64,000 nt of DNA. It comes from Gadus chalcogrammus. Taxonomy: Eukaryota; Chordata; Actinopteri; Gadiformes; Gadidae. Position 1 is the stretch's first letter; every line of letters starts with the position of its first letter. The stretch is from contig NC_079414.1 in NCBI RefSeq assembly GCF_026213295.1, forward strand, positions 6,377,847-6,441,846. Direction: 5' to 3'. The notes below the pieces were generated by a model, which saw nothing but the letters and a program-made list of their open reading frames with translations, was not told the origin of the DNA and did no database searches. A program made the translations under genes and the position numbers. Positions 1-40,555 of the stretch are shown here, piece by piece.

Positions 1-544
1 CTTCAAAGTGCTACTCCTATCACAAATCTTGTCCAATCATCTCGAAACTTGGCACATATGATCTTCCGGCCATGTTTGATAAAAAACATTGAATAGATTT
101 TTCAAATTCTAAACCGTTTGGCCGCTAAAGCCAATCAAATTTGGCGGCGAAGCCGCCAAACGGGATGTAAGCCCATATCTCAGCAGCCCTTTGACATATC
201 ATAACCAACCTTGGTATATAGACCTAAGACCCCATAAAGGTGACACTTAATGAATTTGGTGACCTTTGACCTCTAGGATGCGCTGTTATTAATGTTGATG
301 TGTTTTGACTCCTTTCTCCTCACATGAGTACATTTAAAACTTATTTTCAATGTATTGTGATACTCTCAGACCTCCCCGTATAGCTAGTATATTATTTCTT
401 GCAGAAATATCCGCGACAGCAAATGATATTCGACCGCGAAGCCCCTAAACTGGAAACACGCCAATATCTCAGCAGCCCTTTGACATATCATAACCAAACT
501 TGATACATAGACCCATAACATCATCATGGGGACACTCAATGAAT

Positions 545-603
545 TTAATAATAATAATAATAATAATACATTTAATTTAGAGGCGCCTTTCAAAACACCC
601 AAG
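545..603 (-). mobile_element. Short LINE/SINE 3'-tail fragment with (ATT)n
   Basis: Between GAATTT and GGTCACC this unit has an extra segment absent from all others: an AAT run, then TACATTTAATTTAGAGGCG and CCTTTCAAAACACCCAA. Read on the minus strand it ends in (ATT)n, as a retroposed 3' tail would. The wording resembles a common teleost LINE/SINE tail, but family assignment from so short a piece is tentative. Confidence 0.5.
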
Positions 604-1389
604 GTCACCATTGACCATTGACCTCTAGGGGGCGCTATAATTAATGAAGGCGTGTTTTAACTCCTCTCTCTTCACATGAGTACATTTCAAACTTATTTTT
701 AATGTCTGAGGATACTGCCAGACCTCCTTATATAGCTTATAAATGATTTCTCATTGCAACATCAGAACTTGGCCGCCATGTTGAAAGTTGTCAAAATCAG
801 TTGTAAAGTTCCACAGGCCACAAATGATGTCCAATCTTCATAAAACTTGGCATATATGATCTTCAGACCAAGCTGAACAAATACATTAAACAGCTTTCTC
901 AAATTCAAAACCGTTTGGCCGTGACAGGCAATCAAACATGACGGCGCTCATTAATGGGTAGACACTGCACTAGTGTGGCGATAAGCGGTACTTAATGTAT
1001 AATGCAACAATGACTATATTTACCATTCCGCCCACTTACAATATAAACTGCAATTCCCACTGGATTAGATGCTTCACGAACCACCGGCAGAACGGATGCT
1101 TGTTTACATTGTGTCTCTTTTAGGGATATTGTTCCGAATACCCCTATGTATTTGTGACATTTGTTCTGTCAGGCAGACTGTACTGCGCCCTTACCTCTAG
1201 GTGGGGTCATTTTCCCAATTGGTAAACATTGACGCATACTTGCATAGCGCTCATCCCACCGGCTGTCGGTATTGCCGATTACCGAGACGGTCGTCATGTA
1301 GCCCCCTGGCCGATTACGTCCGTCCGGCAGAATTTGCCTTCCGAGTCCCATTATGCTTGACACCCACATTGCTGCTCGCAGCTATATTT

Positions 1390-1690
1390 GGGTGTCAAGC
1401 AACTATGTTGCGAGACAACCTATTGTTATTGTACGAATTCCTATTATTGGGTGTCAAGCAACTATGTTGCGAGACAACCTATTGTTTTCGTACGAATTCT
1501 TATTATTGGGTGTCAAGCAACTATGTTGCGAGACAACCTATTGTTATTGTACGAATTCTTATTATTGGGTGTCAAGCAACTATGTTGCGAGACAACCTAT
1601 TGTTATTGTACGAATTCTTATTATTATTGGGTGTCAAGCAACTATGTTGCGAGACAACCTATTGTTATTGTACGAATTCTTATTATTATT
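1390..1690 (+). repeat. 59-62 bp minisatellite, five copies
   Basis: Copies begin with GGGTGTCAAGCAACTATG at 1390, 1449, 1508, 1567 and 1629, giving periods of 59, 59, 59 and 62. The 62-bp form differs by one TTA triplet. Each copy holds a GCAAC-TAT-GTTGC hairpin and ends in a short TTA run. A longer (TTA)n tract follows. The copies sit just downstream of the array landmark. Confidence 0.95.
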
Positions 1691-1701
1691 ATTATTATTA
1701 T

Positions 1702-1725
1702 GCTGCCATTGGAGTCAATGGCAGC
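1702..1725 (+). repeat. Perfect 10-bp-stem hairpin in block C (representative)
   Basis: GCTGCCATTG and CAATGGCAGC are perfect reverse complements around a GAGT loop. The element recurs after the TTA run of most units. Some units have single changes, such as GGTAGC in the right arm or CCATGG in the left. Confidence 0.8.
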
Positions 1726-2143
1726 CCATAGAACCGCTTGGCGAAAAGTTGTGAAATTTGGCACACTTGTTCAGGACTGCCCCATTAGCCCATTAAGCCA
1801 ATCTAAGGTCGCTAGCCCAACAGCTCTAGCGCCACCAACAGGTCAAAGTTGGGCATGCATTCATGTTCATAACTTTTGACCTATTCGACCAATTTTCACA
1901 AACCAGGTATCATTGGATTCCTTGAACCAAGCCCAGTTCAACAAACCCTATGACGTCATTGCGCCATGACGTATATGTCCGCCATCTTGGTTTATGTCAA
2001 AAACCTTCAAAATGCTACTCCTATCACAAATCTTGTCCAATCATCTCGAAACTTGGCACACATGATCTTCTGGCCATCCTTGATGAAAAACATCGAATAG
2101 ATTTGTCAAATTCAAAACCGTTTGCCCGCTAAAGCCAATCAAA

Positions 2144-2164
2144 TTTGGCGGCGAAGCCGCCAAA
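2144..2164 (+). repeat. Perfect 9-bp-stem hairpin in block A1 (representative)
   Basis: TTTGGCGGC and GCCGCCAAA pair perfectly around GAA. In other units the loop becomes TAA, GAG, AGA or AAA while the stem stays intact. One lineage (7,400, 9,030, 21,540 and related units) has lost it, reading AACCGCCAAGTTGCCAAA. Confidence 0.75.
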
Positions 2165-2767
2165 CAGGAAGTGAGCCGATTTCTCAGCATCCCTTTGACA
2201 TATCATAACCAGACTTGGTATATAGACCCATGGCCTCATAAAGGTGACACTGATTTAATTTGGTGACCTTTGACCTGTAGGGGGCGCTTGTTCAGGACTG
2301 CCCCATTAGCCCATTAAGCCAATCTAAGGTCGCTAGCCCAACAGCTCTAGCGCCACCAACAGGTCAAAGTTGGGCATGCATTCATGTTCATAACTTTTGA
2401 CCTATTCGACCAATTTTCACAAACCAGGTATTCGACCGCGAAGCCGCCAAACCGGAAACACGCCAATATCTCAGCAGCCCTTTGACATATCATAACCAAA
2501 CTTGATACATAGACCCATAACATCATCAGGGGGACACTCAATGAATTTGGTGACCATTGACCTATAGGGGGCGCTATAATTACTGAAGACGTGTTTTAAC
2601 TTCTCTCTCTTCACATGAGTACATTTCAAACTTATTTTTAATGTCTGAGGATACTGCCAGACCTCCTTATGTAGCTTATGAATTATTTCTCATTGCATCA
2701 GAACTTGGCCGCCATGTTGCAAGTTGTCAAAATCAGTTGAAAATTTCCACAGGCCACAAATTATGTC

Positions 2768-5554: not shown

Positions 5555-6922
5555 ACGCTTGACACCCACATTGCTGCTCGCAGCTATATTTGGGTGTCAA
5601 GCAACTATGTTGCGAGACAACCTATTGTTATTGTACGAATTCTTATTATTATTGGGTGTCAAGCAACTATGTTGCGAGACAACCTATTGTTATTGTACGA
5701 ATTCTTATTATTATTATTATTATTATTATGCTGCCATTGGAGTCAATGGCAGCCCATAGAACCGCTTGGCGAAAAGTTGTGAAATTTGGCACACTTGTTC
5801 AGGACTGCCCCATTAGCCCATTAAGCCAATCTCAGGTCGCTAGCCCAACAGCTCTAGCGCCACCAACAGGTCAAAGTTGGGCATGCATTCATGTTCATAA
5901 CTTTCGACCTATTCGACCAATTTTCACAAACCAGGTATCATTGGATTCCTTGAACCAAGCCCAGTTCAACACACCCTATAACGTCATTGCGTTATGACGT
6001 ATAAGTCCGCCATCTTGGTTTATGTCAAAAACCCTCAAAATGCTACTTCTATCACAAATCTTGTCCAATCATCTCGAAACTTGGTACACATGATCTTCTG
6101 GCCATGCTTGATGAAAAACATCGAATAGATTTGTCAAATTCAAAACCGTTTGCCCGCTAAAGCCAATCAAATTTGGCGGCGAAGCCGCCAAACAGGAAGT
6201 GAGCCGATTTCTCAGCATCCCTTTGACATATCATAACCAGACTTGGTATATAGACCCATGGCCTCATAAAGGTGACACTGATTTAATTTGGTGACCTTTG
6301 ACCTGTAGGGGGCGCTGTTATTAATGTCCATGTGTTTTGACCTCTTTCTCTTCACATGAGTACATTTACAACTTATTTTCAATGTCTGGTGATACTATCA
6401 GACCTCCCCGTATAGCTAGTATATTATAACTTGCACAAATATCCGCGACAGCCAATGATATTCAACCGCGAAGCCGCCAAACTGGAAAAACGCCAATATC
6501 TCAGCATCCCTTGGACAAATCATAACCAAACTTGATACATAGACCCATAACATCATTATGGGGACACTCAATGAATTTGGTGACCATTGACCTCTAGGGG
6601 GCGCTATAATTAATGAAGACGTGTTTTAACTCCTCTCTCTTCACATGAGTACATTTCAAACTTATTTTCAATGTTTAATGATACTGTCAGACCTCCCCAT
6701 ATATCTTGTAAATTATTTTGTTGATATTGTTCCGAATACCCCTATGTATTTGTGACATTTGTTCTGTCAGGCAGACTGCATTGCCCCCTTACCTCTAGGT
6801 GGGGTCCTTTTCCCATTTACTCATCCCACCGGCTGTCGGTATTGCCGATTTCCGAGGCGGTCGTCATGTAGCCCCCTGGCCGATTGCGTCCATCCGGCAG
6901 AATAAGCCTACCGAGTCCGATT
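5555..6922 (+). repeat. Isolated short array unit
   Basis: This 1,368-bp unit carries the same deletion breakpoint as the block at 10,150-19,391 but lies between long units. It has two minisatellite copies and one extra TTA triplet. It shows that the deleted form was spread by exchange or duplication within the array. Confidence 0.85.
5592..5715 (+). repeat. Minisatellite, two copies
   Basis: Copies start at 5592 and 5654 (period 62), at the same place in the array unit as the 1390 cluster. They are followed by a TTA run. Confidence 0.9.
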
Positions 6923-8535
6923 ATGCTTGACACCCACATTGCTGCTCGCAGCTATATTTATTATTATTATGCTGCCATTGGAGTCAATGGTAGCCCATAG
7001 AACCGCTTGGCGAAAAGTTGTGAAATTTGGCACACTGGTTCAGGACAGCCCCATTAGCCCATTAAGCCAATCTCAGGTCGCTAGCCCAACAGCTCTAGCG
7101 CCACCAACAGGTCAAAGTTGGGCATGCATTCATGTTCATAACTTTCGACCTATTCGACCAATATTCACAAACCAGGTATCATTGGATTCCTTGAACCAAG
7201 CCCAGTTCAACACACCCTATGACGTCATTGTGCCATGACGTATATTTCCGCCATCTTGGTTTATGTCAAAAACCTTCAAAATGCTACTTCTATCACAAAT
7301 CTTGTCCAATCATCTCGAATCTTGGCACACATGATCTTGTGGCCATGCTTGATAAAAAACATCGAATAGATTTGTCAAATTCAAAACCGTTTGTCCGCTA
7401 AAGCCAATCAAATTTAACCGCCAAGTTGCCAAACCGGAAGTAAGCCCATATCTCAGAAGCCCTTTGACCTATCATAACCAACCTTGGTAGAGAGACCCAT
7501 GACCGCATCACGGTGACACTGAATGAATTTGGTGACCCTTGACCTCTAGGTGGCGCTGTTATTAATGTCGATGTGTTTTGACTCCTCTCTCTTCACATGA
7601 GTACATTTAAAACTTATTTTCAATGTCTGGTGATACCATCAGACCTCCCCATATAGCTCATATATTACGTCTTGCAGAAATATCCGCGACAGCCAATGAT
7701 ATTCGAGCGCGAAGCCGGAAAACCGGAAACACGCCAATATCTCTGCAGCCCTTTGACATATCATAACCAAACTTGATACATTGACCCATAACATAATCAT
7801 GGGGACAATCAAAGAATTTGGTGACCATTGACCGCTAGGGGGCGCTATAATTAATGAAGACGTGTTTTAACTCCTCTCTCTTCACATGAGTACATTTCAA
7901 ACTTATTTTCAATGTCTGATGATACTGTCAGACCTACTCATATAGCTTATAAATTATTTCTCATTGCAACATCAGAACTTGGCCGCCATGTTGAAAGTTG
8001 TCAAAATCAGTTGTAAATTCCCACAGGCCACAAATTATGTCCAATCTTCATGAAACTCTGCATATATGATCTTCAGACCAAGCTGAACTAATGTGTTAAA
8101 CAGCTTTCTCAAATTCAAAACCGTTTGGCCGTGACAGGCAATCAAACTTGACGGCGCTCATTAATGGGCAGACACTGCACTCGTGTGGCGATAAGCGGTA
8201 CTTAATGTATAATGCAACAATGACTATATTTACCATTCCGCCCACTTAAAATATAAACTGCAATTCCCACTGGATCAGATGCTTCACGAACCACCTCCAG
8301 AAGGGATGCTTGTTTACATGGTGTCTCTTTTAGGGATATTGTTCCGAATACCCCTATGTATTTGTGACATTTGTTCTGTCAGGAAGACTGCATTGCGCCC
8401 TTACCTCTAGGTGGGGTCCTTTTTCCCATTTACTCATCCCACCGGCTGTCGGTATTGCCGATTTCCGAGGCGGTCGTCATGTAGCCCCCTGGCCAAATGC
8501 GTCCATCCGGCAGAATTAGCCTACCGAGTCCGATT

Positions 8536-10149: not shown

Positions 10150-10186
10150 ATGCTTGACACCCACATTGCTGCTCGCAGCTATATTT

Positions 10187-10366
10187 GGGTGTCAAGCAAC
10201 TATGTTGCGAGACAACCTATTGTTTTTGTACGAATTCCTATTATTATTGGGTGTCAAGCAACTATGTTGCGAGACAACCTATTGTTATTGTACGAATTCT
10301 TATTATTGGGTGTCAAGCAACTATGTTGCGAGACAACCTATTGTTATTGTACGAATTCTTATTATT
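10187..10366 (+). repeat. Minisatellite, three copies
   Basis: Copies start at 10187, 10249 and 10308 (periods 62 and 59). They account for the 180 bp by which this unit exceeds the 1,244-bp minimum. Confidence 0.9.
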
Positions 10367-12854
10367 ATTATTATTATTATGCTGCCATTGGAGTCAATGG
10401 CAGCCCATAGAACCGCTTGGCGAAAAGTTGTGAAATTTGGCACACTTGTTCAGGACTGCCCCATTAGCCCATTAAGCCAATCTAAGGTCGCTAGCCCAAC
10501 AGCTCTAGCGCCACCAACAGGTCAAAGTTGGGCATGCATTCATGTTCATAACTTTTGACCTATTCGACCAATTTTCACAAACCAGGTATCATTGGATTCC
10601 TTGAACCAAGCCCAGTTTAACACATCCTATGACGTCATTGCGCCATGACGTATATGTCCGCCATCTTGGTTTATGTCAAAAACCTTCAAAATGCCACTCC
10701 TATCACAAATCTTGTCCAATCATCTCGAAACTTGGCACACATGATCTTCTGGCCATCCTTGATAAAAAACATCGAATAGATTTGTCAAATTCAAAACCGT
10801 TTGCCCGCTAAAGCCAATCAAATTTGGCGGCGAAGCCGCCAAACAGGAAGTGAGCCGATTTCTCAGCATCCCTTTGACATATCATAACCAGACTTGGTAT
10901 ATAGACCCATGGCCTCATAAAGGTGACACTGATTTAATTTGGTGACCTTTGACCTGTAGGGGGCGCTGTTATTAATGTCCATGTGTTTTGACCTCTTTCT
11001 CTTCACATGAGTACATTTACAACTTATTTTCAATGTCTGGTGATACTATCAGACCTCCCCGTATAAATAGTATATTATAACTTGCACAAATATCCGCGAC
11101 AGCCAATGATATTCAACCGCGAAGCCGCCAAACTGGAAAAACGCCAATATCTCAGTATCCCTTGGACAAATCATAACCAAACTTGATACATAGACCCATA
11201 ACATCATTATGGGGACACTCAATGAATTTGGTGACCATTGACCTCTAGGGGGCGCTATAATTAATGAAGACGTGTTTTAACTCCTCTCTCTTCACATGAG
11301 TACATTTCAAACTTATTATCAATGTTTAATGATACTGTCAGACCTCCCCATATATCTTGTAAATTATTTTGTTGATATTGTTCCGAATACCCCTATGTAT
11401 TTGTGACATTTGTTCTGTCAGGCAGACTGCATTGCCCCCTTACCTCTAGGTGGGGTCCTTTTCCCATTTACTCATCCCACCGGCTGTCGGTATTGCCGAT
11501 TTCCGAGGCGGTCGTCATGTAGCCCCCTGGCCGATTGCGTCCATCCGGCAGAATAAGCCTACCGAGTCCGATTATGCTTGACACCCACATTGCTGCTCGC
11601 AGCTATATTTATTATTATTATTATGCTGTCATTGGAGTCAATGGCAGCCCATAGAACCGCTTGGCGAAAAGTTGTGAAATTTGGCAAACTTGTTCAGGAC
11701 TGCCCCATTAGCCCATTAAGCCAATCTAAGGTCGCTAGCCCAACAGCTCTAGCGCCACCAACAGGTCAAAGTTGGGCATGCATTCATGTTCATAACTTTT
11801 GACCTATTCGACTAATTTTCACAAACCAGGTATCATTGGATTCCTTGAACCAAGCCCAGTTCAACACATCCTATGACGTCATTGCGCCATGACGTATATG
11901 TCCGCCATCTTGGTTTATGTCAAAAACCTTCAAAATGCTACTCCTATCACAAATCTTGTCCAATCATCTCGAAACTTGGCACACATGATCTTCTGGCCAT
12001 CCTTGATGAAAAACATCGAATAGATTTGTCAAATTCAAAACCGTTTGCCCGCTAAAGCCAATCAAATTTGGCGGCGAAGCCGCCAAACAGGAAGTGAGCC
12101 GATTTCTCAGCATCCCTTTGACATATCATAACCAGACTTGGTATATAGACCCATGGCCTCATAAAGGTGACACTGATTTAATTTGGTGACCTTTGACCTG
12201 TAGGGGGCGCTGTTATTAATGTCCATGTGTTTTGACCTCTTTCTCTTCACATGAGTACATTTACAACTTATTTTCAATGTCTGGTGATACTATCAGACCT
12301 CCCCGTATAGCTAGTATATTATAACTTGCACAAATATCCGCGACAGCCAATGATATTCAACCGCGAAGCCGCCAAACTGGAAAAACGCCAATATCTCAGT
12401 ATCCCTTGGACAAATCATAACCAAACTTGATACATAGACCCATAACATCATTATGGGGACACTCAATGAATTTGGTGACCATTGACCTCTAGGGGGCGCT
12501 ATAATTAATGAAGACGTGTTTTAACTCCTCTCTCTTCACATGAGTACATTTCAAACTTATTATCAATGTTTAATGATACTGTCAGACCTCCCCATATATC
12601 TTGTAAATTATTTTGTTGATATTGTTCCGAATACCCCTATGTATTTGTGACATTTGTTCTGTTAGGCAGACTGCATTGCCCCCTTACCTCTAGGTGGGGT
12701 CCTTTTCCCATTTACTCATCCCACCGGCTGTCGGTATTGCCGATTTCCGAGGCGGTCGTCATGTAGCCCCCTGGCCGATTGCGTCCATCCGGCAGAATAA
12801 GCCTACCGAGTCCGATTATGCTTGACACCCACATTGCTGCTCGCAGCTATATTT

Positions 12855-12972
12855 GGGTGTCAAGCAACTATGTTGCGAGACAACCTATTGTTATTGTACG
12901 AATTCTTATTATTGGGTGTCAAGCAACTATGTTGCGAGACAACCTATTGTTATTGTACGAATTCTTATTATT
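12855..12972 (+). repeat. Minisatellite, two copies
   Basis: Copies start at 12855 and 12914 (period 59). The host unit is 1,362 bp, which is 1,244 plus 118. Confidence 0.9.
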
Positions 12973-14216
12973 ATTATTATTATTATGCTGCCATTGGAGT
13001 CAATGGCAGCCCATAGAACCGCTTGGCGAAAAGTTGTGAAATTTGGCACACTTGTTCAGGACTGCCCCATTAGCCCATTAAGCCAATCTAAGGTCGCTAG
13101 CCCAACAGCTCTAGCGCCACCAACAGGTCAAAGTTGGGCATGCATTCATGTTCATAACTTTTGACCTATTCGACCAATTTTCACAAACCAGGTATCATTG
13201 GATTCCTTGAACCAAGCCCAGTTCAACAAACCCTATGACGTCATTGCGCCATGACGTATATGTCCGCCATCTTGGTTTATGTCAAAAACCTTCAAAATGC
13301 TACTCCTATCACAAATCTTGTCCAATCATCTCGAAACTTGGCACACATGATCTTCTGGCCATCCTTGATGAAAAACATCGAATAGATTTGTCAAATTCAA
13401 AACCGTTTGCCCGCTAAAGCCAATCAAATTTGGCGGCGAAGCCGCCAAACAGGAAGTGAGCCGATTTCTCAGCATCCCTTTGACATATCATAACCAGACT
13501 TGGTATATAGACCCATGGCCTCATAAAGGTGACACTGATTTAATTTGGTGACCTTTGACCCGTAGGGGGCGCTGTTATTAATGTCCATGTGTTTTGACCT
13601 CTTTCCCTTCACATGAGTACATTTACAACTTATTTTCAATGTCTGGTGATACTATCAGACCTCCCCGTATAGCTAGTATATTATAACTTGCACAAATATC
13701 CGCGACAGCCAATGATATTCAACCGCGAAGCCGCCAAACTGGAAAAACGCCAATATCTCAGTATCCCTTGGACAAATCATAACCAAACTTGATACCTAGA
13801 CCCATAACATCATTATGGGGACACTCAATGAATTTGGTGACCATTGACCTCTAGGGGGCGCTATAATTAATGAAGACGTGTTTTAACTCCTCTCTCTTCA
13901 CATGAGTACATTTCAAACTTATTATCAATGTTTAATGATACTGTCAGACCTCCCCATATATCTTGTAAATTATTTTGTTGATATTGTTCCGAATACCCCT
14001 ATGTATTTGTGACATTTGTTCTGTCAGGCAGACTGCATTGCCCCCTTACCTCTAGGTGGGGTCCTTTTCCCATTTACTCATCCCACCGGCTGTCGGTATT
14101 GCCGATTTCCGAGGCGGTCGTCATGTAGCCCCCTGGCCGATTGCGTCCATCCGGCAGAATAAGCCTACCGAGTCCGATTATGCTTGACACCCACATTGCT
14201 GCTCGCAGCTATATTT

Positions 14217-14275
14217 GGGTGTCAAGCAACTATGTTGCGAGACAACCTATTGTTATTGTACGAATTCTTCTTATT
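14217..14275 (+). repeat. Minisatellite, single copy
   Basis: One copy. The host unit is 1,303 bp, which is 1,244 plus 59. The TTA tail begins with CTTCTTATT instead of CTTATT. Confidence 0.85.
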
Positions 14276-15519
14276 ATTATTATTATTATGCTGCCATTGG
14301 AGTCAATGGCAGCCCATAGAACCGCTTGGCGAAAAGTTGTGAAATTTGGCACACTTGTTCAGGACTGCCCCATTAGCCCATTAAGCCAATCTAAGGTCGC
14401 TAGCCCAACAGCTCTAGCGCCACCAACAGGTCAAAGTTGGGCATGCATTCATGTTCATAACTTTTGACCTATTCGACCAATTTTCACAAACCAGGTATCA
14501 TTGGATTCCTTGAACCAAGCCCAGTTCAACAAACCCTATGACGTCATTGCGCCATGACGTATATGTCCGCCATCTTGGTTTATGTCAAAAACCTTCAAAA
14601 TGCTACTCCTATCACAAATCTTGTCCAATCATCTTGAAACTTGGCACACATGATCTTCTGGCCATCCTTGATGAAAAACATCGAATAGATTTGTCAAATT
14701 CAAAACCGTTTGCCCGCTAAAGCCAATCAAATTTGGCGGCGAAGCCGCCAAACAGGAAGTGAGCCGATTTCTCAGCATCCCTTTGACATATCATAACCAG
14801 ACTTGGTATATAGACCCATGGCCTCATAAAGGTGACACTGATTTAATTTGGTGACCTTTGACCTGTAGGGGGCGCTGTTATTAATGTCCATGTGTTTTGA
14901 CCTCTTTCCCTTCACATGAGTACATTTACAACTTATTTTCAATGTCTGGTGATACTATCAGACCTCCCCGTATAGCTAGTATATTATAACTTGCACAAAT
15001 ATCCGCGACAGCCAATGATATTCAACCGCGAAGCCGCCAAACTGGAAAAACGCCAATATCTCAGTATCCCTTGGACAAATCATAACCAAACTTGATACCT
15101 AGACCCATAACATCATTATGGGGACACTCAATGAATTTGGTGACCATTGACCTCTAGGGGGCGCTATAATTAATGAAGACGTGTTTTAACTCCTCTCTCT
15201 TCACATGAGTACATTTCAAACTTATTATCAATGTTTAATGATACTGTCAGACCTCCCCATATATCTTGTAAATTATTTTGTTGATATTGTTCCGAATACC
15301 CCTATGTATTTGTGACATTTGTTCTGTCAGGCAGACTGCATTGCCCCCTTACCTCTAGGTGGGGTCCTTTTCCCATTTACTCATCCCACCGGCTGTCGGT
15401 ATTGCCGATTTCCGAGGCGGTCGTCATGTAGCCCCCTGGCCGATTGCGTCCATCCGGCAGAATAAGCCTACCGAGTCCGATTATGCTTGACACCCACATT
15501 GCTGCTCGCAGCTATATTT

Positions 15520-15578
15520 GGGTGTCAAGCAACTATGTTGCGAGACAACCTATTGTTATTGTACGAATTCTTATTATT
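15520..15578 (+). repeat. Minisatellite, single copy
   Basis: One copy. The host unit is again 1,303 bp. Confidence 0.85.
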
Positions 15579-16822
15579 ATTATTATTATTATGCTGCCAT
15601 TGGAGTCAATGGCAGCCCATAGAACCGCTTGGCGAAAAGTTGTGAAATTTGGCACACTTGTTCAGGACTGCCCCATTAGCCCATTAAGCCAATCTAAGGT
15701 CGCTAGCCCAACAGCTCTAGCGCCACCAACAGGTCAAAGTTGGGCATGCATTCATGTTCATAACTTTTGACCTATTCGACCAATTTTCACAAACCAGGTA
15801 TCATTGGATTCCTTGAACCAAGCCCAGTTCAACACATCCTATGACGTCATTGCGCCATGACGTATATGTCCGCCATCTTGGTTTATTTCAAAAACCTTCA
15901 AAATGCTACTCCTATCACAAATCTTGTCCAATCATCTCGAAACTTGGCACACATGATCTTCTGGCCATCCTTGATGAAAAACATCGAATAGATTTGTCAA
16001 ATTCAAAACCGTTTGCCCGCTAAAGCCAATCAAATTTGGCGGCGAAGCCGCCAAACAGGAAGTGAGCCGATTTCTCAGCATCCCTTTGACATATCATAAC
16101 CAGACTTGGTATATAGACCCATGGCCTCATAAAGGTGACACTGATTTAATTTGGTGACCTTTGACCTGTAGGGGGCGCTGTTATTAATGTCCATGTGTTT
16201 TGACCTCTTTCTCTTCACATGAGTACATTTACAACTTATTTTCAATGTCTGGTGATACTATCAGACCTCCCCGTATAGCTAGTATATTATAACTTGCACA
16301 AATATCCGCGACAGCCAATGATATTCAACCGCGAAGCCGCCAAACTGGAAAAACGCCAATATCTCAGTATCCCTTGGACAAATCATAACCAAACTTGATA
16401 CATAGACCCATAACATCATTATGGGGACACTCAATGAATTTGGTGACCATTGACCTCTAGGGGGCGCTATAATTAATGAAGACGTGTTTTAACTCCTCTC
16501 TCTTCACATGAGTACATTTCAAACTTATTATCAATGTTTAATGATACTGTCAGACCTCCCCATATATCTTGTAAATTATTTTGTTGATATTGTTCCGAAT
16601 ACCCCTATGTATTTGTGACATTTGTTCTGTCAGGCAGACTGCATTGCCCCCTTACCTCTAGGTGGGGTCCTTTTCCCATTTACTCATCCCACCGGCTGTC
16701 GGTATTGCCGATTTCCGAGGCGGTCGTCATGTAGCCCCCTGGCCGATTGCGTCCATCCGGCAGAATAAGCCTACCGAGTCCGATTATGCTTGACACCCAC
16801 ATTGCTGCTCGCAGCTATATTT

Positions 16823-16940
16823 GGGTGTCAAGCAACTATGTTGCGAGACAACCTATTGTTATTGTACGAATTCTTATTATTGGGTGTCAAGCAACTATGT
16901 TGCGAGACAACCTATTGTTATTGTACGAATTCTTATTATT
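16823..16940 (+). repeat. Minisatellite, two copies
   Basis: Copies start at 16823 and 16882 (period 59). The host unit is 1,362 bp. Confidence 0.9.
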
Positions 16941-19900
16941 ATTATTATTATTATGCTGCCATTGGAGTCAATGGCAGCCCATAGAACCGCTTGGCGAAAA
17001 GTTGTGAAATTTGGCACACTTGTTCAGGACTGCCCCATTAGCCCATTAAGCCAATCTAAGGTCGCTAGCCCAACAGCTCTAGCGCCACCAACAGGTCAAA
17101 GTTGGGCATGCATTCATGTTCATAACTTTTGACCTATTCGACCAATTTTCACAAACCAGGTATCATTGGATTCCTTGAACCAAGCCCAGTTCAACAAACC
17201 CTATGACGTCATTGCGCCATGACGTATATGTCCGCCATCTTGGTTTATGTCAAAAACCTTCAAAATGCTACTCCTATCACAAATCTTGTCCAATCATCTC
17301 GAAACTTGGCACACATGATCTTCTGGCCATCCTTGATGAAAAACATCGAATAGATTTGTCAAATTCAAAACCGTTTGCCCGCTAAAGCCAATCAAATTTG
17401 GCGGCGAAGCCGCCAAACAGGAAGTGAGCCGATTTCTCAGCATCCCTTTGACATATCATAACCAGACTTGGTATATAGACCCATGGCCTCATAAAGGTGA
17501 CACTGATTTAATTTGGTGACCTTTGACCCGTAGGGGGCGCTGTTATTAATGTCCATGTGTTTTGACCTCTTTCCCTTCACATGAGTACATTTACAACTTA
17601 TTTTCAATGTCTGGTGATACTATCAGACCTCCCCGTATAGCTAGTATATTATAACTTGCACAAATATCCGCGACAGCCAATGATATTCAACCGCGAAGCC
17701 GCCAAACTGGAAAAACGCCAATATCTCAGTATCCCTTGGACAAATCATAACCAAACTTGATACCTAGACCCATAACATCATTATGGGGACACTCAATGAA
17801 TTTGGTGACCATTGACCTCTAGGGGGCGCTATAATTAATGAAGACGTGTTTTAACTCCTCTCTCTTCACATGAGTACATTTCAAACTTATTATCAATGTT
17901 TAATGATACTGTCAGACCTCCCCATATATCTTGTAAATTATTTTGTTGATATTGTTCCGAATACCCCTATGTATTTGTGACATTTGTTCTGTCAGGCAGA
18001 CTGCATTGCCCCCTTACCTCTAGGTGGGGTCCTTTTCCCATTTACTCATCCCACCGGCTGTCGGTATTGCCGATTTCCGAGGCGGTCGTCATGTAGCCCC
18101 CTGGCCGATTGCGTCCATCCGGCAGAATAAGCCTACCGAGTCCGATTATGCTTGACACCCACATTGCTGCTCGCAGCTATATTTATTATTATTATTATGC
18201 TGCCATTGGAGTCAATGGCAGCCCATAGAACCGCTTGGCGAAAAGTTGTGAAATTTGGCACACTTGTTCAGGACTGCCCCATTAGCCCATTAAGCCAATC
18301 TAAGGTCGCTAGCCCAACAGCTCTAGCGCCACCAACAGGTCAAAGTTGGGCATGCATTCATGTTCATAACTTTTGACCTATTCGACCAATTTTCACAAAC
18401 CAGGTATCATTGGATTCCTTGAACCAAGCCCAGTTCAACAAACCCTATGACGTCATTGCGCCATGACGTAAATGTCCGCCATCTTGGTTTATGTCAAAAA
18501 CCTTCAAAATGCTACTCCTATCACAAATCTTGTCCAATCATCTTGAAACTTGGCACACATGATCTTCTGGCCATCCTTGATGAAAAACATCGAATAGATT
18601 TGTCAAATTCAAAACCGGTTGCCCGCTAAAGCCAATCAAATTTGGCGGCGAAGCCGCCAAACAGGAAGTGAGCCGATTTCTCAGCATCCCTTTGACATAT
18701 CATAACCAGACTTGGTATATAGACCCATGGCCTCATAAAGGTGACACTGATTTAATTTGGTGACCTTTGACCTGTAGGGGGCGCTGTTATTAATGTCCAT
18801 GTGTTTTGACCTCTTTCTCTTCACATGAGTACATTTACAACTTATTTTCAATGTCTGGTGATACTATCAGACCTCCCCGTATAGCTAGTATATTATAACT
18901 TGCACAAATATCCGCGACAGCCAATGATATTCAACCGCGAAGCCGCCAAACTGGAAAAACGCCAATATCTCAGTATCCCTTGGACAAATCATAACCAAAC
19001 TTGATACATAGACCCATAACATCATTATGGGGACACTCAATGAATTTGGTGACCATTGACCTCTAGGGGGCGCTATAATTAATGAAGACGTGTTTTAACT
19101 CCTCTCTCTTCACATGAGTACATTTCAAACTTATTATCAATGTTTAATGATACTGTCAGACCTCCCCATATATCTTGTAAATTATTTTGTTGATATTGTT
19201 CCGAATACCCCTATGTATTTGTGACATTTGTTCTGTCAGGCAGACTGCATTGCCCCCTTACCTCTAGGTGGGGTCCTTTTCCCATTTACTCATCCCACCG
19301 GCTGTCGGTATTGCCGATTTCCGAGGCGGTCGTCATGTAGCCCCCTGGCCGATTGCGTCCATCCGGCAGAATAAGCCTACCGAGTCCGATTATGCTTGAC
19401 ACCCACATTGCTGCTCGCAGCTATATTTATTATTATTATTATGCTGCCATTGGAGTCAATGGCAGCCCATAGAACCGCTTGGCGAAAAGTTGTGAAATTT
19501 GGCACACTTGTTCAGGACTGCCCCATTAGCCCATTAAGCCAATCTAAGGTCGCTAGCCCAACAGCTCTAGCGCCACCAACAGGTCAAAGTTGGGCATGCA
19601 TTCATGTTCATAACTTTTGACCTATTCGACCAATTTTCACAAACCAGGTATCATTGGATTCCTTGAACCAAGCCCAGTTTAACACATCCTATGACGTCAT
19701 TGCGCCATGACGTATATGTCCGCCATCTTGGTTTATGTCAAAAACCTTCAAAATGCTACTCCTATCACAAATCTTGTCCAATCATCTCGAAACTTGGCAC
19801 ACATGATCTTCTGGCCATCCTTGATGAAAAACATTGAATAGATTTGTCAAATTCAAAACCGTTTGCCCGCTAAAGCCAATCAAATTTGGCGGCGAAGCCG

Positions 19901-30089: not shown

Positions 30090-32789
30090 ATTATTATTAT
30101 TATCCTTCAATGGGAGTCAATGGCAGCCCATAGAACCGCTTGGCGAAAAGTTGTGAAATTTGGCACACTGGTTCAAGACAGCCCCATTAGCCCATTAACC
30201 CAATCTCAGGTCGCTAGCCCAAAAGCTCTAGCGCCACCAACAGGTCAAAGTTGGACATGCATTCATGTTCATAACTTTTGACCCATTCGACCAATATTCA
30301 CAAACCAGGTATCAATGGATTCCTTGAAACAAGCCCAGTTCAACACACCCTATGACCTCATTGCGCCATGACGTATATTTCCGCCATCTTGGTTTATGTC
30401 AAAAACCATCAAAATGCTACTTCTATCACAAATCTTGTCCAATCATCTCGGAACTTGGCGCACATGATCTTCTGGCCATCTTTGATAAAAAACATTGAAT
30501 AGATTTGTCATATTCAAAACCGTTTGCCCGCTAAAGCCAGTCAAATTTGGCGGCGAAGCCGCCAAACAGGAAGTGAGCCAATTTCTCAGCATCCCTTTGA
30601 CATATCATAACCAGGCTTGGTATATAGACCAATGGCCTCATAAAGGTGACACTGATTGAATTTGGTGACCTTTGACCTCTAGGGGGCGCTGTTATTAATG
30701 TCGATGTGTTTTGACTTCTTTCACTTCACATGAGTATATTTAAAACTTATTTTCAATGTCTGGTGATACTTTTAGACCTATCAGTATAGCTAGTGTATTA
30801 TTTCTTGCAGAAATATCCGCGACAGCCAATGATATTCGACCGCGAAGCCGCCAAACCGGAAACACGCCAATATATCAGCAGCCATTTGACATATCATAAC
30901 CAAACTTGATACATAGACCCATGGCCTCATTAAGGTGACACTCAATGAATTTGGTGACCATTGACCTATAGGGGGCGCTGTTATTAATGACGATGTGTTT
31001 TAACTCCTCTCTCTTCACATGAGTACATTTCAAACTTATTTTTAACGTCTGAGGATACTGCCAGACCTCCTTATATAGCTTATGAATCATTTCTCATTGC
31101 AACATCAGAACTTGGCCGCCATGTTGAAAGTTGTCAAAATCAGTTGAAAATTTCCTAAGGCCACAAATTATGTCCAATCTTCATGGAACTTGGCATATAT
31201 GTTCTTCAGACCAAGCTGAACAAAGGTATCAAACAGCTTTCTCAAATTCTAAACCGTTTGGCCGTGACAGCCAATCAAACTTGACGGCGCTCATTAATGG
31301 GTAGACACTGCACTCGTGTGGCGACATGCGGTACTTAATGCATAATGCAACAATGACTCTATTAACCATTCCGCCCGCTTACGATATAAACTGCAATACC
31401 CACTGGATTAGATGCTTCACGAACCACCTCCAGAACGAATACTTGATTACATTGTGTCTCTTTTAGAGATATTGTTCCGAATACCCCTATGTATTTGTGA
31501 CATTTGTTCTGTCAGGCAGGCTGTATTGCGCCCATACCTCTAGGTGGGGTCATTTTCCCACATAATGCTCATCCCACCGGCTGTCGGTATTGCCGATTTC
31601 CGAGACGGTCGTCATGTAGCCCCCTGGCCAATTGCGTCCATCAGGCAGAATTAGCCTACCGAGTCCGATTATGCTTGACACCCACATTGCATCTCGCAGC
31701 TATATTTATTATTATTATTATGCTGCCATTGGAGTCAATGGTAGCCCATAGAACCGCTTGGCGAAAAGTTGTGAAATTTGGCACACTGGTTCAGGACTGC
31801 CCCATTAGCCCATTAAGCCAATCTCAGGTCGCTAGCCCAACAGCTCTAGCGCCACCAACAGGTCAAAGTTGGGCATGCATTCATGTTCATAACTTTCGAC
31901 CTATTCGACCAATATTCACAAACCAGGTATCATTGGATTCCTTGAACCAAGCCCAGTTCAACACACCCTATGACGTCATTGTGCCATGACGTATATTTCC
32001 GCCATCTTGGTTTATGTCAAAAACCTTCAAAATGCTACTTCTATCACAAATCTTGTCCAATCATCTCGAATCTTGACACACATGATCTTCTGGCCATGCT
32101 TGATAAAAAACATCGAATAGATTTGTCAAATTCAAAACCGTTTGTCCGCTAAAGCCAATCAAATTTAACCGCCAAGTTGCCAAACCGGATGTAAGCCAAT
32201 ATCTCAACAGCCCTTTGACATATCATAACCAACCTTGGTATATAGACCCAAGCCCCCATAAAGCTGACACTGAATGAATTTGGTGACCTTTGACCTCTAG
32301 GGGGCGCTGTTATTAATGTCGATGTGTTTTGACTCCTCCCTCTTCACATGAGTACATTTAAAAATTATTTTCAATGTCTGGTGATACTATCAGACCTCCC
32401 CGTATAGCGAGTATATTATATTTTGCAGAAATATCCGCGGCAGCTGATGATATTCGACCGCGAAGCCGCCAAACCGGAAACACGCCAATATCTCAGCAGC
32501 CCTTTGACATATCATAACCAAACTTGATACATAGATCCATAACATCATCAGGGGGACACTCAATGAATTTGGTGACCATTGACCTATAGGGGGCGCTATA
32601 ATTACTGAAGACGTGTTTTAACTTCTCTCTCTTCACATGAGTACATTTCAAACTTATTTTTAATGTCTGAGGATACTGCCAGACCTCCTTATGTAGCTTA
32701 TGAATTATTTCTCATTGCATCAGAACTTGGCCGCCATGTTGCAAGTTGTCAAAATCAGTTGAAAATTTCCACAGGCCACAAATTATGTC

Positions 32790-33448
32790 TGTGTTGTCTC
32801 TCCTGGCACTCATTTAATATTCTTACATTGATTTCTTAAATATGTATATGTAAAAACGGATGTGAATAATTACTTTACAGTTAAAATAAGCCAATGTATA
32901 AATTCATATTATTTTGCCGTTTTAGGTTTGTTTTTATTTCACTTCCGGTTTAGTCACTTCCTGTGACGTCATTTCCTGTTAAAAATCGTACCTCTGTAGA
33001 AGGAATGGCAGACATGTGCATCTTCTGATTGTAATCCGCTAGCATCCACATGAAAGCATCTAAGAGGCAATGCCGTAAATTTGTTTAATCAATGCAAGAC
33101 ATGTTTAAGATAATATATTAGAGTGGATTTAGTTAAAAATAATGTTTGATGTGTTGTTAAAAACGTTTTGGTTAGCAATTGTGTACAAACTAAAATCAAT
33201 GCAATTGGCATCAGAATGTCTTCATGCAGTGTTAGACAGTTTATATTATTATTTACAACTATGTACAACATGCTGTTTAGTCAAATGTACATTCAGTATT
33301 TTTGTATTCTTTTACTTGCAGTTTTCACCGTCTGTTCATGAGGAATTGTGACAGTAAATGGTCAACCTTACTACGACTCTGTCTTCATTGGCTACGGTTT
33401 AACTCGGTGTTAAGTCAGGGTTACAACACACTGCACGAGAACACTACA
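32790..33448 (+). mobile_element. Solo LTR, copy 2 (659 bp)
   Basis: Same LTR, same insertion position and same ATGTC duplication (32785-32789 and 33449-33453) as copy 1, with only scattered differences. The flanking array sequence on both sides also matches copy 1. It is a duplicated segment, not a second insertion. Confidence 0.8.
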
Positions 33449-33947
33449 ATGTCCAATCTTCATAGAACTTGGCATATATGATCTTCCGACCAAGCTGAAC
33501 AAATGTATCAAACCGCTTTCTCAAATTCATAACCGTTTGGCCGTGACAGCCAATCAAACTTGACGACGCTGATTAATGGGTAGACACTGCACTTGTGTGG
33601 CGACAAGCGGTACTTAATGTATACTACAACAATGACTATATTTACCATTACGCCGATTTACAATATAAACTTCAATTCCCGATGGATTAGATGCTTCACG
33701 AACCACCTCCAGAACGGGTGCTTGTTTACATTGTGTCTCTTTTAGGAATATTGTTCCGAATACCCCTATGTATTTGTGACATTTGTTCTGTCAGGCAGAC
33801 TGTATTGCGCCCTTACCTCTAGGTGGGGTCCTTTTCCCATTTCCTCATCCCACCGGCTGTCGGTATTGCCGATTTTCCGAGACGGTCGTCATGTAGCCCC
33901 CTGGCCGATTACGTCCATCCGGCAGAATTAGCCTACCGAGTCCCATT

Positions 33948-35191
33948 ATGCTTGACACCCACATTGCTGCTCGCAGCTATATTTATTATTATTATTATGC
34001 TGCCATTGGAGTCAATGGCAGCCCATAGAACCGCTTGGCGAAAAGTTGTGAAATTTGGCACACTTGTTCAGGACTGCCCCATTAGCCCATTAAGCCAATC
34101 TAAGGTCGCTAGCCCAACAGCTCTAGCGCCACCAACAGGTCAAAGTTGGGCATGCATTCATGTTCATAACTTTTGACCTATTCGACCAATTTTCACAAAC
34201 CAGGTATCATTGGATTCCTTGAACCAAGCCCAGTTCAACAAACCCTATGACGTCATTGCGCCATGACGTAAATGTCCGCCATCTTGGTTTATGTCAAAAA
34301 CCTTCAAAATGCTACTCCTATCACAAATCTTGTCCAATCATCTTGAAACTTGGCACACATGATCTTCTGGCCATCCTTGATGAAAAACATCGAATAGATT
34401 TGTCAAATTCAAAACCGTTTGCCCGCTAAAGCCAATCAAATTTGGCGGCGAGGCCGCCAAACAGGAAGTGAGCCGATTTCTCAGCATCCCTTTGACATAT
34501 CATAACCAGACTTGGTATATAGACCCATGGCCTCATAAAGGTGACACTGATTTAATTTGGTGACCTTTGACCTGTAGGGGGCGCTGTTATTAATGTCCAT
34601 GTGTTTTGACCTCTTTCTCTTCACATGAGTACATTTACAACTTATTTTCAATGTCTGGTGATACTATCAGACCTCCCCGTATAGCTAGTATATTATAACT
34701 TGCACAAATATCCGCGACAGCCAATGATATTCAACCGCGAAGCCGCCAAACTGGAAAAACGCCAATATCTCAGTATCCCTTGGACAAATCATAACCAAAC
34801 TTGATACATAGACCCATAACATCATTATGGGGACACTCAATGAATTTGGTGACCATTGACCTCTAGGGGGCGCTATAATTAATGAAGACGTGTTTTAACT
34901 CCTCTCTCTTCACATGAGTACATTTCAAACTTATTATCAATGTTTAATGATACTGTCAGACCTCCCCATATATCTTGTAAATTATTTTGTTGATATTGTT
35001 CCGAATACCCCTATGTATTTGTGACATTTGTTCTGTCAGGCAGACTGCATTGCCCCCTTACCTCTAGGTGGGGTCCTTTTCCCATTTACTCATCCCACCG
35101 GCTGTCGGTATTGCCGATTTCCGAGGCGGTCGTCATGTAGCCCCCTGGCCGATTGCGTCCATCCGGCAGAATAAGCCTACCGAGTCCGATT
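33948..35191 (+). repeat. Isolated short array unit downstream of a solo LTR
   Basis: Exactly 1,244 bp with no minisatellite copy. It is nearly identical to the unit at 18,148-19,391, including the shared variant GACGTAAATGTCC, and has the same deletion breakpoint. It is separated from the main short-unit block by about 14 kb of long units. Confidence 0.85.
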
Positions 35192-37336: not shown

Positions 37337-38541
37337 AAATGGTTTGATAGCCCTACATGGTTTGATACAAACAAACTATCATTAAACTTAAGCAAAACAA
37401 AATTAATGTTATTTGGTAACTGCAGAAAAAACACAGAAATACATATAAATATAAATGGAGTTGAAATTGAAAGAGTTTACGAAAATAAATTTCTTGGGAT
37501 TATAATCGACGAACGATTCAGTTGGAAATCACACATTACACACGTACAATCAAAACTATCAAGAAGCATTTATGTATTAAACAAAGTAAAATTGGTTCTA
37601 GATCAAAAATCACTCCGTATTCTCTACTGTTCACTAGTCTTACCATACCTCAATTACTGTACGGAAGTCTGGGGCAACACGTACAAAACTTCATTACATT
37701 CACTTACTATTCTCCAAAAAAAAGCCATTCGCATTATTCACAATGTGAGATATCTGAATCACACTAACCCACTATTCATACGGTCAAAATTATTAAAATT
37801 CACAGATCTGGTGGAATTTCAAACCACACAGATAATGTTTAAGGCTAAAATCAACATATTACCCTTAAACATACAAAAATTATTCAGTGATCGTGAGGGG
37901 GGGTTATAATTTAAGGGGAAAATTAAATTTCAAAGTGAACAGCGTCCGTACGACCAGGAAAATGTTTTGTATTTCAATATGTGGTGTAAGACTGTGGAAC
38001 AGTTTGAGTGGGGAGATCAAGGAATGTCCAAACATTAATCAGTTTAAAATAAAATACAAAGAATTGATTTTTACAAGGTAAAGGGATGAAGAAGGTGTCT
38101 AACATAGTGTATATGTTTTCATGTATGTATATATTGGACAATCACTTTAGAATATTGAATGTTGAATTAGATATTATTAAAAGATAACTTGACAATATTA
38201 TTAGATAAATACGCAGGTAGTAATGAATTGTATCATATTGTAAACTAATGTATATTAATATACAATTATTTTTTGATGATTATTATATAAGGAAGCTAAT
38301 CATTATAGATAAATAAATTAGGAAGAAGGGGTGAGATTAAATAAGTTTTCTTCTTCTCACCCCTTTTCGAACAGGTAAAGCAAGTGTAAGACAGTTTCTT
38401 CTTTTGTGGTTTTCATTGTGTGTAAACATTACTTTATTGTAACTGTCCACTTGTTTCATTTATTTGATTGTTTATTATTATTATTTTTTATTATTATTTA
38501 CTTGTTTGAAATAAAAACTTTTTCAATTCAATTTCAATTCA
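37337..38541 (+). mobile_element. 5'-truncated CR1/jockey-like (Rex1-like) LINE in the array
   Basis: The array sequence TTTGGCGGCAAAGCC breaks at about 37,336 and resumes at AAAACCGGATG near 38,541. The insert holds the last part of a reverse transcriptase ORF, an AT-rich 3' UTR, AATAAAAAC and a TTCAATTCAA repeat tail. This is the form expected of target-primed reverse transcription with 5' truncation. Protein wording resembles fish Rex1/CR1-type elements; the clade name is from recall, not a search. Exact ends and target duplication are unclear. Confidence 0.75.
37340..38081 (+). pseudogene. C-terminal reverse-transcriptase fragment of the truncated LINE
   Basis: The first frame, to 37,909, reads through typical post-catalytic LINE RT features: NKLSLNLSKTK, KFLGIIID, SLVLPYLNYC and VWGNTY. 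These match the thumb and C-terminal region of CR1/jockey-superfamily RTs. The frame breaks in a run of seven G near 37,900 and continues in another frame (YNLRGKLNF, then FCISICGVRLWNSL) to a stop at 38,081. The palm catalytic motif (xADD) lies upstream of the truncation and is missing. The ORF's apparent start in array sequence is fortuitous. It cannot encode a working enzyme. Confidence 0.75.
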
Positions 38542-39144
38542 AAACCGGATGTAAGCCAATATCTCAGCAGCCCTTTGACATATAACCAACCTTGGTACAT
38601 AGACCCATGACCCCATAAAGGTGACACTGAATGAATCTGGTGAGATTTGACTTCTAGGGGGCGCTGTTATTAATGTCGATGTGTTTTGACTCCTCTCTCT
38701 TCACATGAGTACATTTAAAACTTATTTTCAATGTCTAGTGATACTATCAGACCTCCCCGTATAGCTAGTATATTATTTCTTGCAGAAATATCCGCGACAG
38801 CCAATGATATTCGACCGCGAAGACGCCAAACCGGAAACACGCCAATATCTCAGCAGCCCTTTGACATATCATAACCAAACTTGATACATAGACCCATAAC
38901 ATCATCAGGGGGACACTCAATGAATTTGGTGACCATTGACCTATAGGGGGCGCTATAATTAATGAAGACGTGTTTTAACTTCTCTCTCTTCACATGAGTA
39001 CATTTCAAACTTATTTTTAATGTCTGAGGATACCTCCAGACCTCCTTATGTAGCTTATGAATTATTTCTCATTGCATCAGAACTTGGCCGCCATGTTGAA
39101 AGTTGTAAATCTGTTGAAAATTTCCACAGGCCACAAATTATGTC

Positions 39145-39803
39145 TGTGTTGTCTCTCCTGGCACTCATTTAATATTCTTACATTGATTTCTTAAATATTT
39201 ATATGTAAAAACGGATGTGAATAATTACTTTACAGTTAAAATAAGCCAATGTATAAATTCATATTATTTTGCCGTTTTAGGTTTGTGATTATGTCACTTC
39301 CGGTTTAGTCACTTCCTGTGACGTCATTTCCTGTTAAAAATCTTCCCTCTGTAGAAGGAATGGCAGACATGTGCATCTTCTGATTGTAATCCGCTAGCCT
39401 CCACATGAAAGCATCTAAGAGGCAATGCCGTAAGTTTGTTTAATCAATGCAAGACATGTTTAAGATAATATATTAGAGTGGATTTAGTTAAAAATAATGT
39501 TTGATGTGTTGTTAAAAACGTTTTGGTTAGCAATTGTGTACAAACTCAAATCAATGCAACTGGCATCAGAATGTCTTCATGCAGTGTTAGACAGTTTATA
39601 TTATTATTAACAACTATGTACAACATGCTGTTTAGTCAAATGTACATTCAATATTTTTGTATTCTTTTATTTGCAGTTTTCACCGTCTGTTAATGAGGAA
39701 TTTTGACAGTAAATGGTCAACCTTACTACGACTCTGTCTTCATTGGCTACGGTTTAACTCGGTGTTAAGTCAGGGTTACAACACACTGCACGAGAATACT
39801 ACA
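39145..39803 (+). mobile_element. Solo LTR, copy 3 (659 bp)
   Basis: Third copy, with the ATGTC duplication at 39140-39144 and 39804-39808. By eye it is more diverged than copies 1 and 2 (for example AATCTTCCCTCTG, AACTCAAATC and GAATTTTGACAG differences). It therefore separated earlier or lies outside the region being homogenised. Confidence 0.8.
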
Positions 39804-40555
39804 ATGTCCAATCTTCATAGAACTTGGCATATATGATCTTCCGACCAAGCTGAACAAATGTATCAAACCGCTTTCTCAAATTCAAAACCGTTTGGCCGTG
39901 ACAGCCAATCAAACTTGACAGCTCAAACAGTGGATCAAACAGCTTTCTCAAATTCAAAACCGTTTGGCCGTGACAACCAATCAAACATGACGGCGCTCAT
40001 TAATGGGTAGACACTGCACTCGTGTGGCGATAAGCGGTACTTAATGTATAATGCAACAATGACTATATTTACCATTCCGCCCACCTACAATATAAACTGC
40101 AATTCCCACTGAATTAAATGCTTCCCACTGGATTAGATGCTTCACGAACAACCTCCAGAACGGATGCTTCTTTACATTGTGTCTCTTTTAGGGATATTGT
40201 TCCGAATACCCCTACGTATTTGTGACATTTGTTCTGTCAGGCAGACTGCATTGTGCCCTTACCTCTAGGTGGGGTCCTTTTCCCATTTACTCATCCCACC
40301 GGCTGTCGGTATTGCCGATTTCCGAGGCGGTCGTCATGTAGCCCCCTGGCCGATTGCGTCCATCCGGCAGAATTAGCCTACCGAGTCCGATTATGCTTGA
40401 CACCCACATTGCTGCTCGCAGCTATATTTATATTTGAAATTCGTCCCAATCGCAAAGATGTCATTTGTAGAGGAGATGATTTTGCTTTGTGTCATCCGAA
40501 ATTAGCCAAAGAAGGCGGAAAAAGTGTAGGCCTACGCAGAGCTGACATGTGACAC

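What the first reader, a model, noticed from the sequence alone, without database searches (positions are those of the whole stretch)
1..40432. Macrosatellite array with regularly spaced CTCF-like and YY1-like sites, comparable in layout to mammalian DXZ4
Seen: nearly every unit has two TAGGGGGCGC cores within a YAGRKGGCRS context, about 290 bp apart, all in the same orientation. A perfect YY1-type CCGCCATCTTGG also recurs in each unit. That is roughly fifty CTCF-like and over twenty YY1-like matches in 40 kb. Known: the mammalian DXZ4 macrosatellite is a tandem array whose units bind CTCF and YY1 and which acts in chromosome folding. Inference: this array could be an independently evolved architectural element, a boundary or loop anchor, whose strength scales with copy number. 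Variants (TAGGTGGCGC) stay within the CTCF consensus, hinting at constraint, though shared descent explains most of it.
Basis: partly seen in the sequence, partly recalled or inferred. Interest (0 to 1): 0.75.

Follow-up and report, generated by a model that had tools for sequence, protein, structure and literature searches.

The report
Jumping-gene tandem array with CTCF-like motifs
A stretch of about 48 kilobases on a fish chromosome is built from end-to-end copies of a small mobile element, and each copy carries sequence motifs that look like docking sites for the genome-folding protein CTCF; the motifs came with the element, and no dedicated chromosome-folding job has been shown.

Summary
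In detail: 42 exact TAGGGGGCGC cores (chance 0.03) and 24 CCGCCATCTTGG in the array. Units also have a third, weaker CTCF-like site on the minus strand and, in long units, a second YY1-like site, both missed.

It is not a DXZ4-like single-locus invention. Units have the anatomy of HINEs, non-autonomous Helentron-type rolling-circle transposons: subterminal inverted repeats, 5' stem, ATT tract, 3' palindrome, exact head-to-tail joins. Close copies (97-100%) sit on ten other contigs, and solo insertions exist, so the motifs are transposon-borne. A second, distantly related HINE-like family, also tandem, has CTCF-like sites at aligned positions.

Constraint is mixed. Among 23 array units the two main sites are as diverse as the rest, but their changes fall on matrix-tolerant positions (P 0.003-0.009). 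In six old solo copies the homologous site is weakened (three) or lost (three), while young solo copies match the array.

Best reading: a HINE-derived macrosatellite carrying CTCF-type modules of the transposon. Occupancy, insulation and function were not shown; searches for the host CTCF gene and for an autonomous partner did not complete.

The parts
1..40428 (+). tandem array of HINE-like units (family F1); it continues about 7.6 kb to the left of the window (C3:6370238-6418274 in all, about 48 kb)
5591..6958 (+). example short unit (lacks consensus 1061-1431)
5592..5602 (+). 5' subterminal inverted repeat GGGTGTCAAGC, repeated with the ~60-bp minisatellite; folds with GACAACC downstream
   Evidence: z -3.6
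6925..6935 (+). 3' subterminal inverted repeat GCTTGACACCC, exact complement of the 5' one
6941..6952 (+). 3' palindrome GCTGCTCGCAGC, followed by the TATATT end
   Evidence: hairpin no better than shuffles, z 0
5855..5873 (-). CTCF-like site M TGACCTGTTGGTGGCGCTA, 16.4 bits
6006..6017 (-). YY1-like site Y1 CAAGATGGCGGA
6299..6317 (+). CTCF-like site A TGACCTGTAGGGGGCGCTG, 22.8 bits
6588..6606 (+). CTCF-like site B TGACCTCTAGGGGGCGCTA, 23.6 bits
31115..31126 (-). YY1-like site Y2 CAACATGGCGGC, in a long unit
7220..7227 (+). TGACGTCA (CRE-like, name recalled); 22 of the 25 in the window lie 28 bp before a Y1 core, the other 3 lie elsewhere
   Evidence: 0.64 expected by chance
10186..19427 (+). 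block of seven short units differing by 0.2-0.7% from their neighbours
37337..38541 (+). insertion in the last unit, with an open frame that resembles a LINE C-terminus (resemblance recalled; no Pfam match)
42160..42959 (+). degraded copy of the second HINE-like family F2, outside the array

Best explanation
The array is a macrosatellite built from a non-autonomous, Helentron-type rolling-circle transposon (HINE-like). Copies were laid end to end at their exact termini and further multiplied by exchange in ATT tracts, and unit subfamilies moved between chromosomes. A unit brings about three CTCF-type and one or two YY1-type motifs that belong to the transposon. Shown: anatomy, end joins, spread over many contigs, solo copies, motif strength, CTCF-type sites in a second, alignable family. 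Inferred: the way the copies were joined and moved; that CTCF binds when the DNA is accessible, making the array a dense cluster of possible loop-extrusion stops, as a by-product of the transposon rather than a dedicated host element.
For: Ends: subterminal inverted repeats GGGTGTCAAGC and GCTTGACACCC, 5' stem, ATT tract, 3' palindrome, as defined in PMC4067079 (Background and part 1 of Results read) and PMC7492417 (passages). Of 25 3' ends in the window, 8 run directly into TGGGTGTC, 2 through TATTATT, 14 into an ATT tract without the 5' repeat, 1 is the array end. 762 3' ends with up to 3 mismatches genome-wide, control 0. Solo insertions L014 and L031 have both ends and A, B, M and Y1. Of 23 window units compared with the fetched loci, 11 (nine of them short units) have a relative within 1.3% at another locus; neighbours outside the short block differ by 3-10%, mostly 6-10%. 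One long unit has matches printed as 100% (rounded) on C13, C95 and C8. Tandem Helitron clusters are known in bat and silkworm and ascribed to bypassed termination (PMC4067079 passage).
Against: No autonomous Rep/helicase partner with these ends was shown (the PF14214 search did not complete). No empty site was compared. The 3' hairpin folds no better than shuffles. 14 of 24 internal junctions lack the 5' repeat, and the short block has units identical to each other, so local amplification made a good part of the array. CTCF binding is inferred from matrices recalled from memory; the host CTCF gene was not verified.
Confidence: 0.75

Rival explanations
1. The CTCF-type module serves the transposon itself: active HINE lineages keep it because bound CTCF holds chromatin open or places copies at loop anchors, and dead copies lose it.
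For: F1 and F2 align better than base shuffles (local 43.4 against a maximum of 29.6 of 100; A2/B module 47.1 against a maximum of 28.1, B2/A module 26.0 against 24.2 of 200), and 19-mers over the CTCF cores reach the best match count (15) in both module alignments. Changes in A and B among array units are matrix-tolerant (11 events, mean -1.50 against neutral -3.66, P 0.003; 0.009 if M is counted in; about 0.005 with another spectrum), while ten changes at B in four old solo copies average -4.81 against neutral -3.30. 98 of 100 listed places of a site-masked pattern score 19 bits or more; 98 of the 100 lie on C2, and the other 1238 places were not listed. Site M repeats 19 of 21 bases of site A inverted, without flanking similarity (shuffle maximum 15, 400 shuffles).
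Against: Only 11 events, not independent. Diversity at A and B is average. The full 19-bp sites are less remarkable than their cores in the F1/F2 alignments: 68 of 375 windows match as well as A2, 29 of 359 as well as B2; other stretches also reach 15. Two other registers and the upstream part alone do not beat shuffles. Three of six old copies still score above 12.6 bits at B. Six of 319 sampled 21-mers of the unit have a second copy with 19 or more matches, these within a longer internal repeat. The module could bind another protein.
Confidence: 0.22
2. The motifs are passive passengers: young copies still resemble their source and old ones decay, with no function for host or transposon.
For: Average diversity at A and B. 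At B, six old solo copies have 22 changes in 111 cells against 8.8% overall; 9 of the 22, by hand count, come from L035, where the stretch may have been replaced. The F2 copy in the window is visibly changed at B2 (not scored).
Against: CTCF cores at aligned positions in two families about 68% identical where aligned, and tolerant changes among array units.
Confidence: 0.45
3. A host architectural element, boundary or loop anchor, like DXZ4, FIRRE or D4Z4.
For: Dense, strong CTCF-type motifs of one polarity (46 at p<=1e-6, all +) with YY1-type motifs; Dxz4 sites also share polarity (PMC6985041 passages).
Against: Many loci, and units shared between them. F2 has no YY1-type site above 12 bits. 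Deleting the CTCF-rich Firre locus left its TAD boundary in place (PMC5899154 abstract).
Confidence: 0.12
4. The conserved module binds something else: a nuclear receptor on TGACCTTTGACCT (DR1-like, recalled) or a transposon protein.
For: The 21-bp match between A and M includes CTTTGACCTG as well as the CTCF core.
Against: F2 keeps TAGG(T/G)GGCGC but not TTTGACCT at its two sites.
Confidence: 0.15

Closest known systems
HINE / Helentron rolling-circle transposons (PMC4067079; oyster Cg_HINE, PMC7492417)
   Same: subterminal inverted repeats, 5' complementary repeat, microsatellite, internal tandem repeats, 3' palindrome, T-rich flanks; no coding capacity seen; fish are known hosts of Helentrons
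   Different: whole units form an array of 48 kb; carries CTCF- and YY1-type motifs; autonomous partner not shown
Tandem Helitron clusters of bat and silkworm (PMC4067079 passage)
   Same: copies in tandem, explained there by bypassed termination
   Different: here a fish HINE-like element with mixed subfamilies and many ATT-tract junctions
DXZ4 / Dxz4 macrosatellite (PMC6985041, PMC3491370 passages)
   Same: kilobase tandem units with CTCF- and YY1-type motifs; the mouse form also has an internal VNTR, more than 5% unit divergence and is not GC-rich like the human one
   Different: DXZ4 is one X-linked locus with shown occupancy, human form 62.2% GC; this array is 42% GC, one of many, transposon-made, without binding data
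Transposon-borne CTCF sites in zebrafish (SINE3-1a, HATN9_DR; PMC9341505 passages)
   Same: transposons supplying CTCF sites in a teleost
   Different: other transposon classes, and not described there as tandem arrays in the passages seen
DINE-1-like elements supplying male-specific-lethal complex binding sites in Drosophila miranda (PMC4067079 Background)
   Same: HINE-type elements delivering chromatin-protein sites
   Different: different protein; there it rests on published work, here on motifs only

Membership tests
HINE | subterminal inverted repeats near both ends | tested here: met
   11 bp, exact complements
HINE | 5' inverted repeat complementary to the subTIR, and microsatellite | tested here: met
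   stem z -3.6; ATT tract
HINE | 3' palindrome near the terminus | tested here: met
   GCTGCTCGCAGC 6 bp from the end; hairpin energy no better than shuffles
HINE | T-rich target without duplication | tested here: inconclusive
   L014, L029, L030, L031 flanked by T-rich DNA; no empty site compared
HINE | autonomous Helentron with the same ends | not tested
   The genome search with PF14214 sent 16 times, never answered
DXZ4-type macrosatellite | single locus (X-linked) | tested here: not met
   units on C2, C3, C4, C7, C8, C12, C13, C16, C20, C69, C95, C96; sex linkage not tested
DXZ4-type macrosatellite | CTCF and YY1 motifs in the units | tested here: met
   motifs only, matrices recalled
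DXZ4-type macrosatellite | CpG-rich unit (human form; the mouse form is not GC-rich) | tested here: not met
   42% GC, CpG o/e 0.74 in the array, 0.70 in the flank
DXZ4-type macrosatellite | CTCF occupancy and contact boundary | not testable with these tools
   no ChIP or Hi-C data on hand

The most novel reading that the evidence does not exclude
Rolling-circle HINE lineages of this fish carry a CTCF docking module as part of their own life cycle. It has been kept since the ancestor of two strongly diverged families, occurs duplicated and in inverted orientation within F1, and erodes once copies die. End-to-end concatenation then turns it into arrays of dozens of CTCF-type sites on many chromosomes, which could act as clustered extrusion stops or meet as hubs.
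Probability: 0.2. Interest if true: 0.8.

Novelty: new variant of a known kind. Interest (0 to 1): 0.45.

Why it matters
It links three known things that I did not find joined in the listings of nine literature searches: HINE transposons, transposon-made macrosatellites and transposon-borne CTCF motifs. If the motifs are occupied, a mobile element has built natural multi-site arrays at many loci, with its strong sites in one polarity. With the solo copies as single-unit controls, one genome would let one ask how CTCF-site number and orientation set insulation strength, and whether transposons profit from recruiting CTCF.

Tried and rejected
Purely local satellite homogenisation: rejected as the whole story, because 11 of 23 units have a relative within 1.3% at another locus while neighbours outside the short block differ by 3-10%; within the short block local amplification is likely too. 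TAGGTGGCGC as a sign of constraint: it is an inherited allele. Loci L009-L020 were fetched by an exact motif match, so they were not used for decay tests. Old solo copies: nine places carry the variant 5' end; L033 and L037 were dropped because their bodies do not align, L036 as a local duplicate of L035; six were counted, four (L035 and L039 left out there for a replaced or gapped site). Site M is conserved in the six old copies (2 changes in 114 cells, P 0.002), but 40 of 1194 windows are as low and its neighbourhood is conserved too, so no motif-specific constraint is claimed for it. Array units u01, u03, u22 and u27 were left out of the diversity counts as partial or interrupted. The F1/F2 shuffles kept base content only, a weaker control than dinucleotide shuffles. 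Rfam and tRNA scans gave nothing. A paper met in a reference list was not held.
Full report
What is there. The window starts inside a tandem array that ends at 40428. It lies on contig C3 of a 630-Mb genome in 168 contigs and runs from about C3:6370238 to 6418274, some 48 kb; between C3:6358500 and that start no copy was found at E<=1e-10.

The motifs. A typical unit has two + sites (A and B, mostly 19-24 bits), one weaker - site (M, 16.4 bits), Y1 and, if long, Y2. Exceptions are, such as the first pair in the window (352 bp apart, the left one 12.7 bits) and a 14.8-bit A site at 38648. A and B lie in an internal repeat about 289 bp apart. TGACGTCA occurs 25 times against 0.64 expected, 22 of them 28 bp before a Y1 core.

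What the unit is. Units run from a 5' subterminal inverted repeat GGGTGTCAAGC, often repeated in a ~60-bp minisatellite, through an ATT tract, to GCTTGACACCC-ACATT-GCTGCTCGCAGC-TATATT. The 5' end folds into a strong stem (z -3.6); the 3' hairpin is no better than shuffles. This is the anatomy given for HINEs in PMC4067079 (Background and part 1 of Results read; passages) and PMC7492417 (passages). Of 25 3' ends in the window, 8 join directly to the next 5' end, 2 through TATTATT, 14 enter an ATT tract without the 5' repeat, and 1 ends the array. I infer end-to-end insertion or bypassed termination for the first group and exchange in ATT tracts for the third.

Not one locus. The 18-mer TGACCTCTAGGGGGCGCT occurs 586 times genome-wide, control 0. 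The 3' end occurs 762 times with up to 3 mismatches, control 0. Copies 97-100% identical to one window unit sit on C2, C7, C8, C12, C13, C16, C20, C69, C95 and C96 (only 40 of 700 candidates were scored), and C4 has units 0.1-0.6% from window units. On C2 copies are spread over about 115 kb, of which I read only the two ends. Solo insertions with both ends exist, for example L014 and L031. Of 23 window units compared, 11 (nine of them short) have a relative within 1.3% at another locus, whereas neighbours outside the short block differ by 3-10%, mostly 6-10%.

A second family. A different repeat of 871 bp, F2, with the same kind of ends (AGGGGTCCAAGCC ... CTTGGACCCC, palindrome AACTGCTTGCAGTT) also forms head-to-tail copies, some inserted in F1 units, and has two CTCF-type sites, up to 26.4 bits. 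Its consensus has no YY1-type site above 12 bits. F1 and F2 align better than base shuffles in the whole (43.4 against at most 29.6) and in two modules (47.1 against 28.1; 26.0 against 24.2), with A2 opposite B and B2 opposite A; two other registers and the upstream part alone do not beat shuffles. 19-mers over the CTCF cores reach the best match count, 15, but so do other stretches, and the full 19-bp sites rank lower (68 of 375 and 29 of 359 windows match as well). A degraded F2 copy lies in the window at 42160-42959.

Constraint, for and against. For: changes in A and B among array units are matrix-tolerant (11 events, mean -1.50 against -3.66 expected, P 0.003; 0.009 with M counted in; 0.005 under a simpler spectrum). 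98 of 100 listed places of a site-masked pattern score 19 bits or more, two score 13.5 and 11.8; 98 of these places are on C2, and 1238 of the 1338 were not listed. M repeats 19 of 21 bases of A inverted, without flanking similarity. Against: diversity at A and B is average for the unit (43rd percentile). In six old solo copies, sampled by their 5' end, B is weakened (14.5, 12.7 and 15.8 bits, still above the 12.6-bit cut) or lost (three), with 22 changes in 111 cells against 8.8% overall; 9 of the 22 come from one copy. Young solo copies have the same motifs as the array, so nothing is array-specific. The pattern, kept in lineages that multiplied and eroding in old copies, fits a module useful to the transposon, but passive descent from intact sources explains much of it.

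How it most likely works. Shown: transposon anatomy, array structure, motif strength, spread. Inferred: if CTCF reaches these sites, the 46 strong + sites in 40 kb would stop cohesin mainly from one side, as for the common polarity of Dxz4 sites (PMC6985041 passages). CTCF-dense loci need not be boundaries: deletion of Firre left its TAD boundary in place (PMC5899154 abstract). Zebrafish transposons are known to supply CTCF-bound sites (PMC9341505 passages).

Compared with the known. It works, at most, like DXZ4; it is not a member, since the single locus was tested and not met, nor is the unit CpG-rich as in the human form. It meets the tested structural features of HINEs, with target site and autonomous partner open. 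Searches for HINE or Helitron arrays with CTCF sites and for cod CTCF or satellite work (PMC13011446 has no occurrence of CTCF in its main text) showed no report of this combination in their listings; I read no listed paper beyond those named here.

Noticed in passing
window:45321-49682: LINE with a GDSL-like first frame (31.5 bits, just below the Pfam cut-off of 32.9) and an endonuclease plus reverse-transcriptase frame of 887 aa, 85% identical to a Gadus morhua protein over 74% of the query.
   Followed up: partly
window:2762-3420, 39146-39800: An insert of roughly 650 bp shared by several units (probably also in the unit at 31707-33983), with its own TGACGTCA at 2941, 32964 and 39319; seen by eye.
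   Followed up: no
L024:2840-7001: Tandem copies of the second HINE-like family F2 directly joined to an F1 unit on C2, with CTCF-type sites of up to 26.4 bits.
   Followed up: partly
window:60828-60933, 62932-63068, 63908-64000: Repeats of about 21 bp of the type TCATAATTACGAGATTTAAAG at three places, the last in inverted orientation.
   Followed up: no
window:44871-45115 and 46228-46448: Two-copy tandem repeats of 123 and 114 bp.
   Followed up: no
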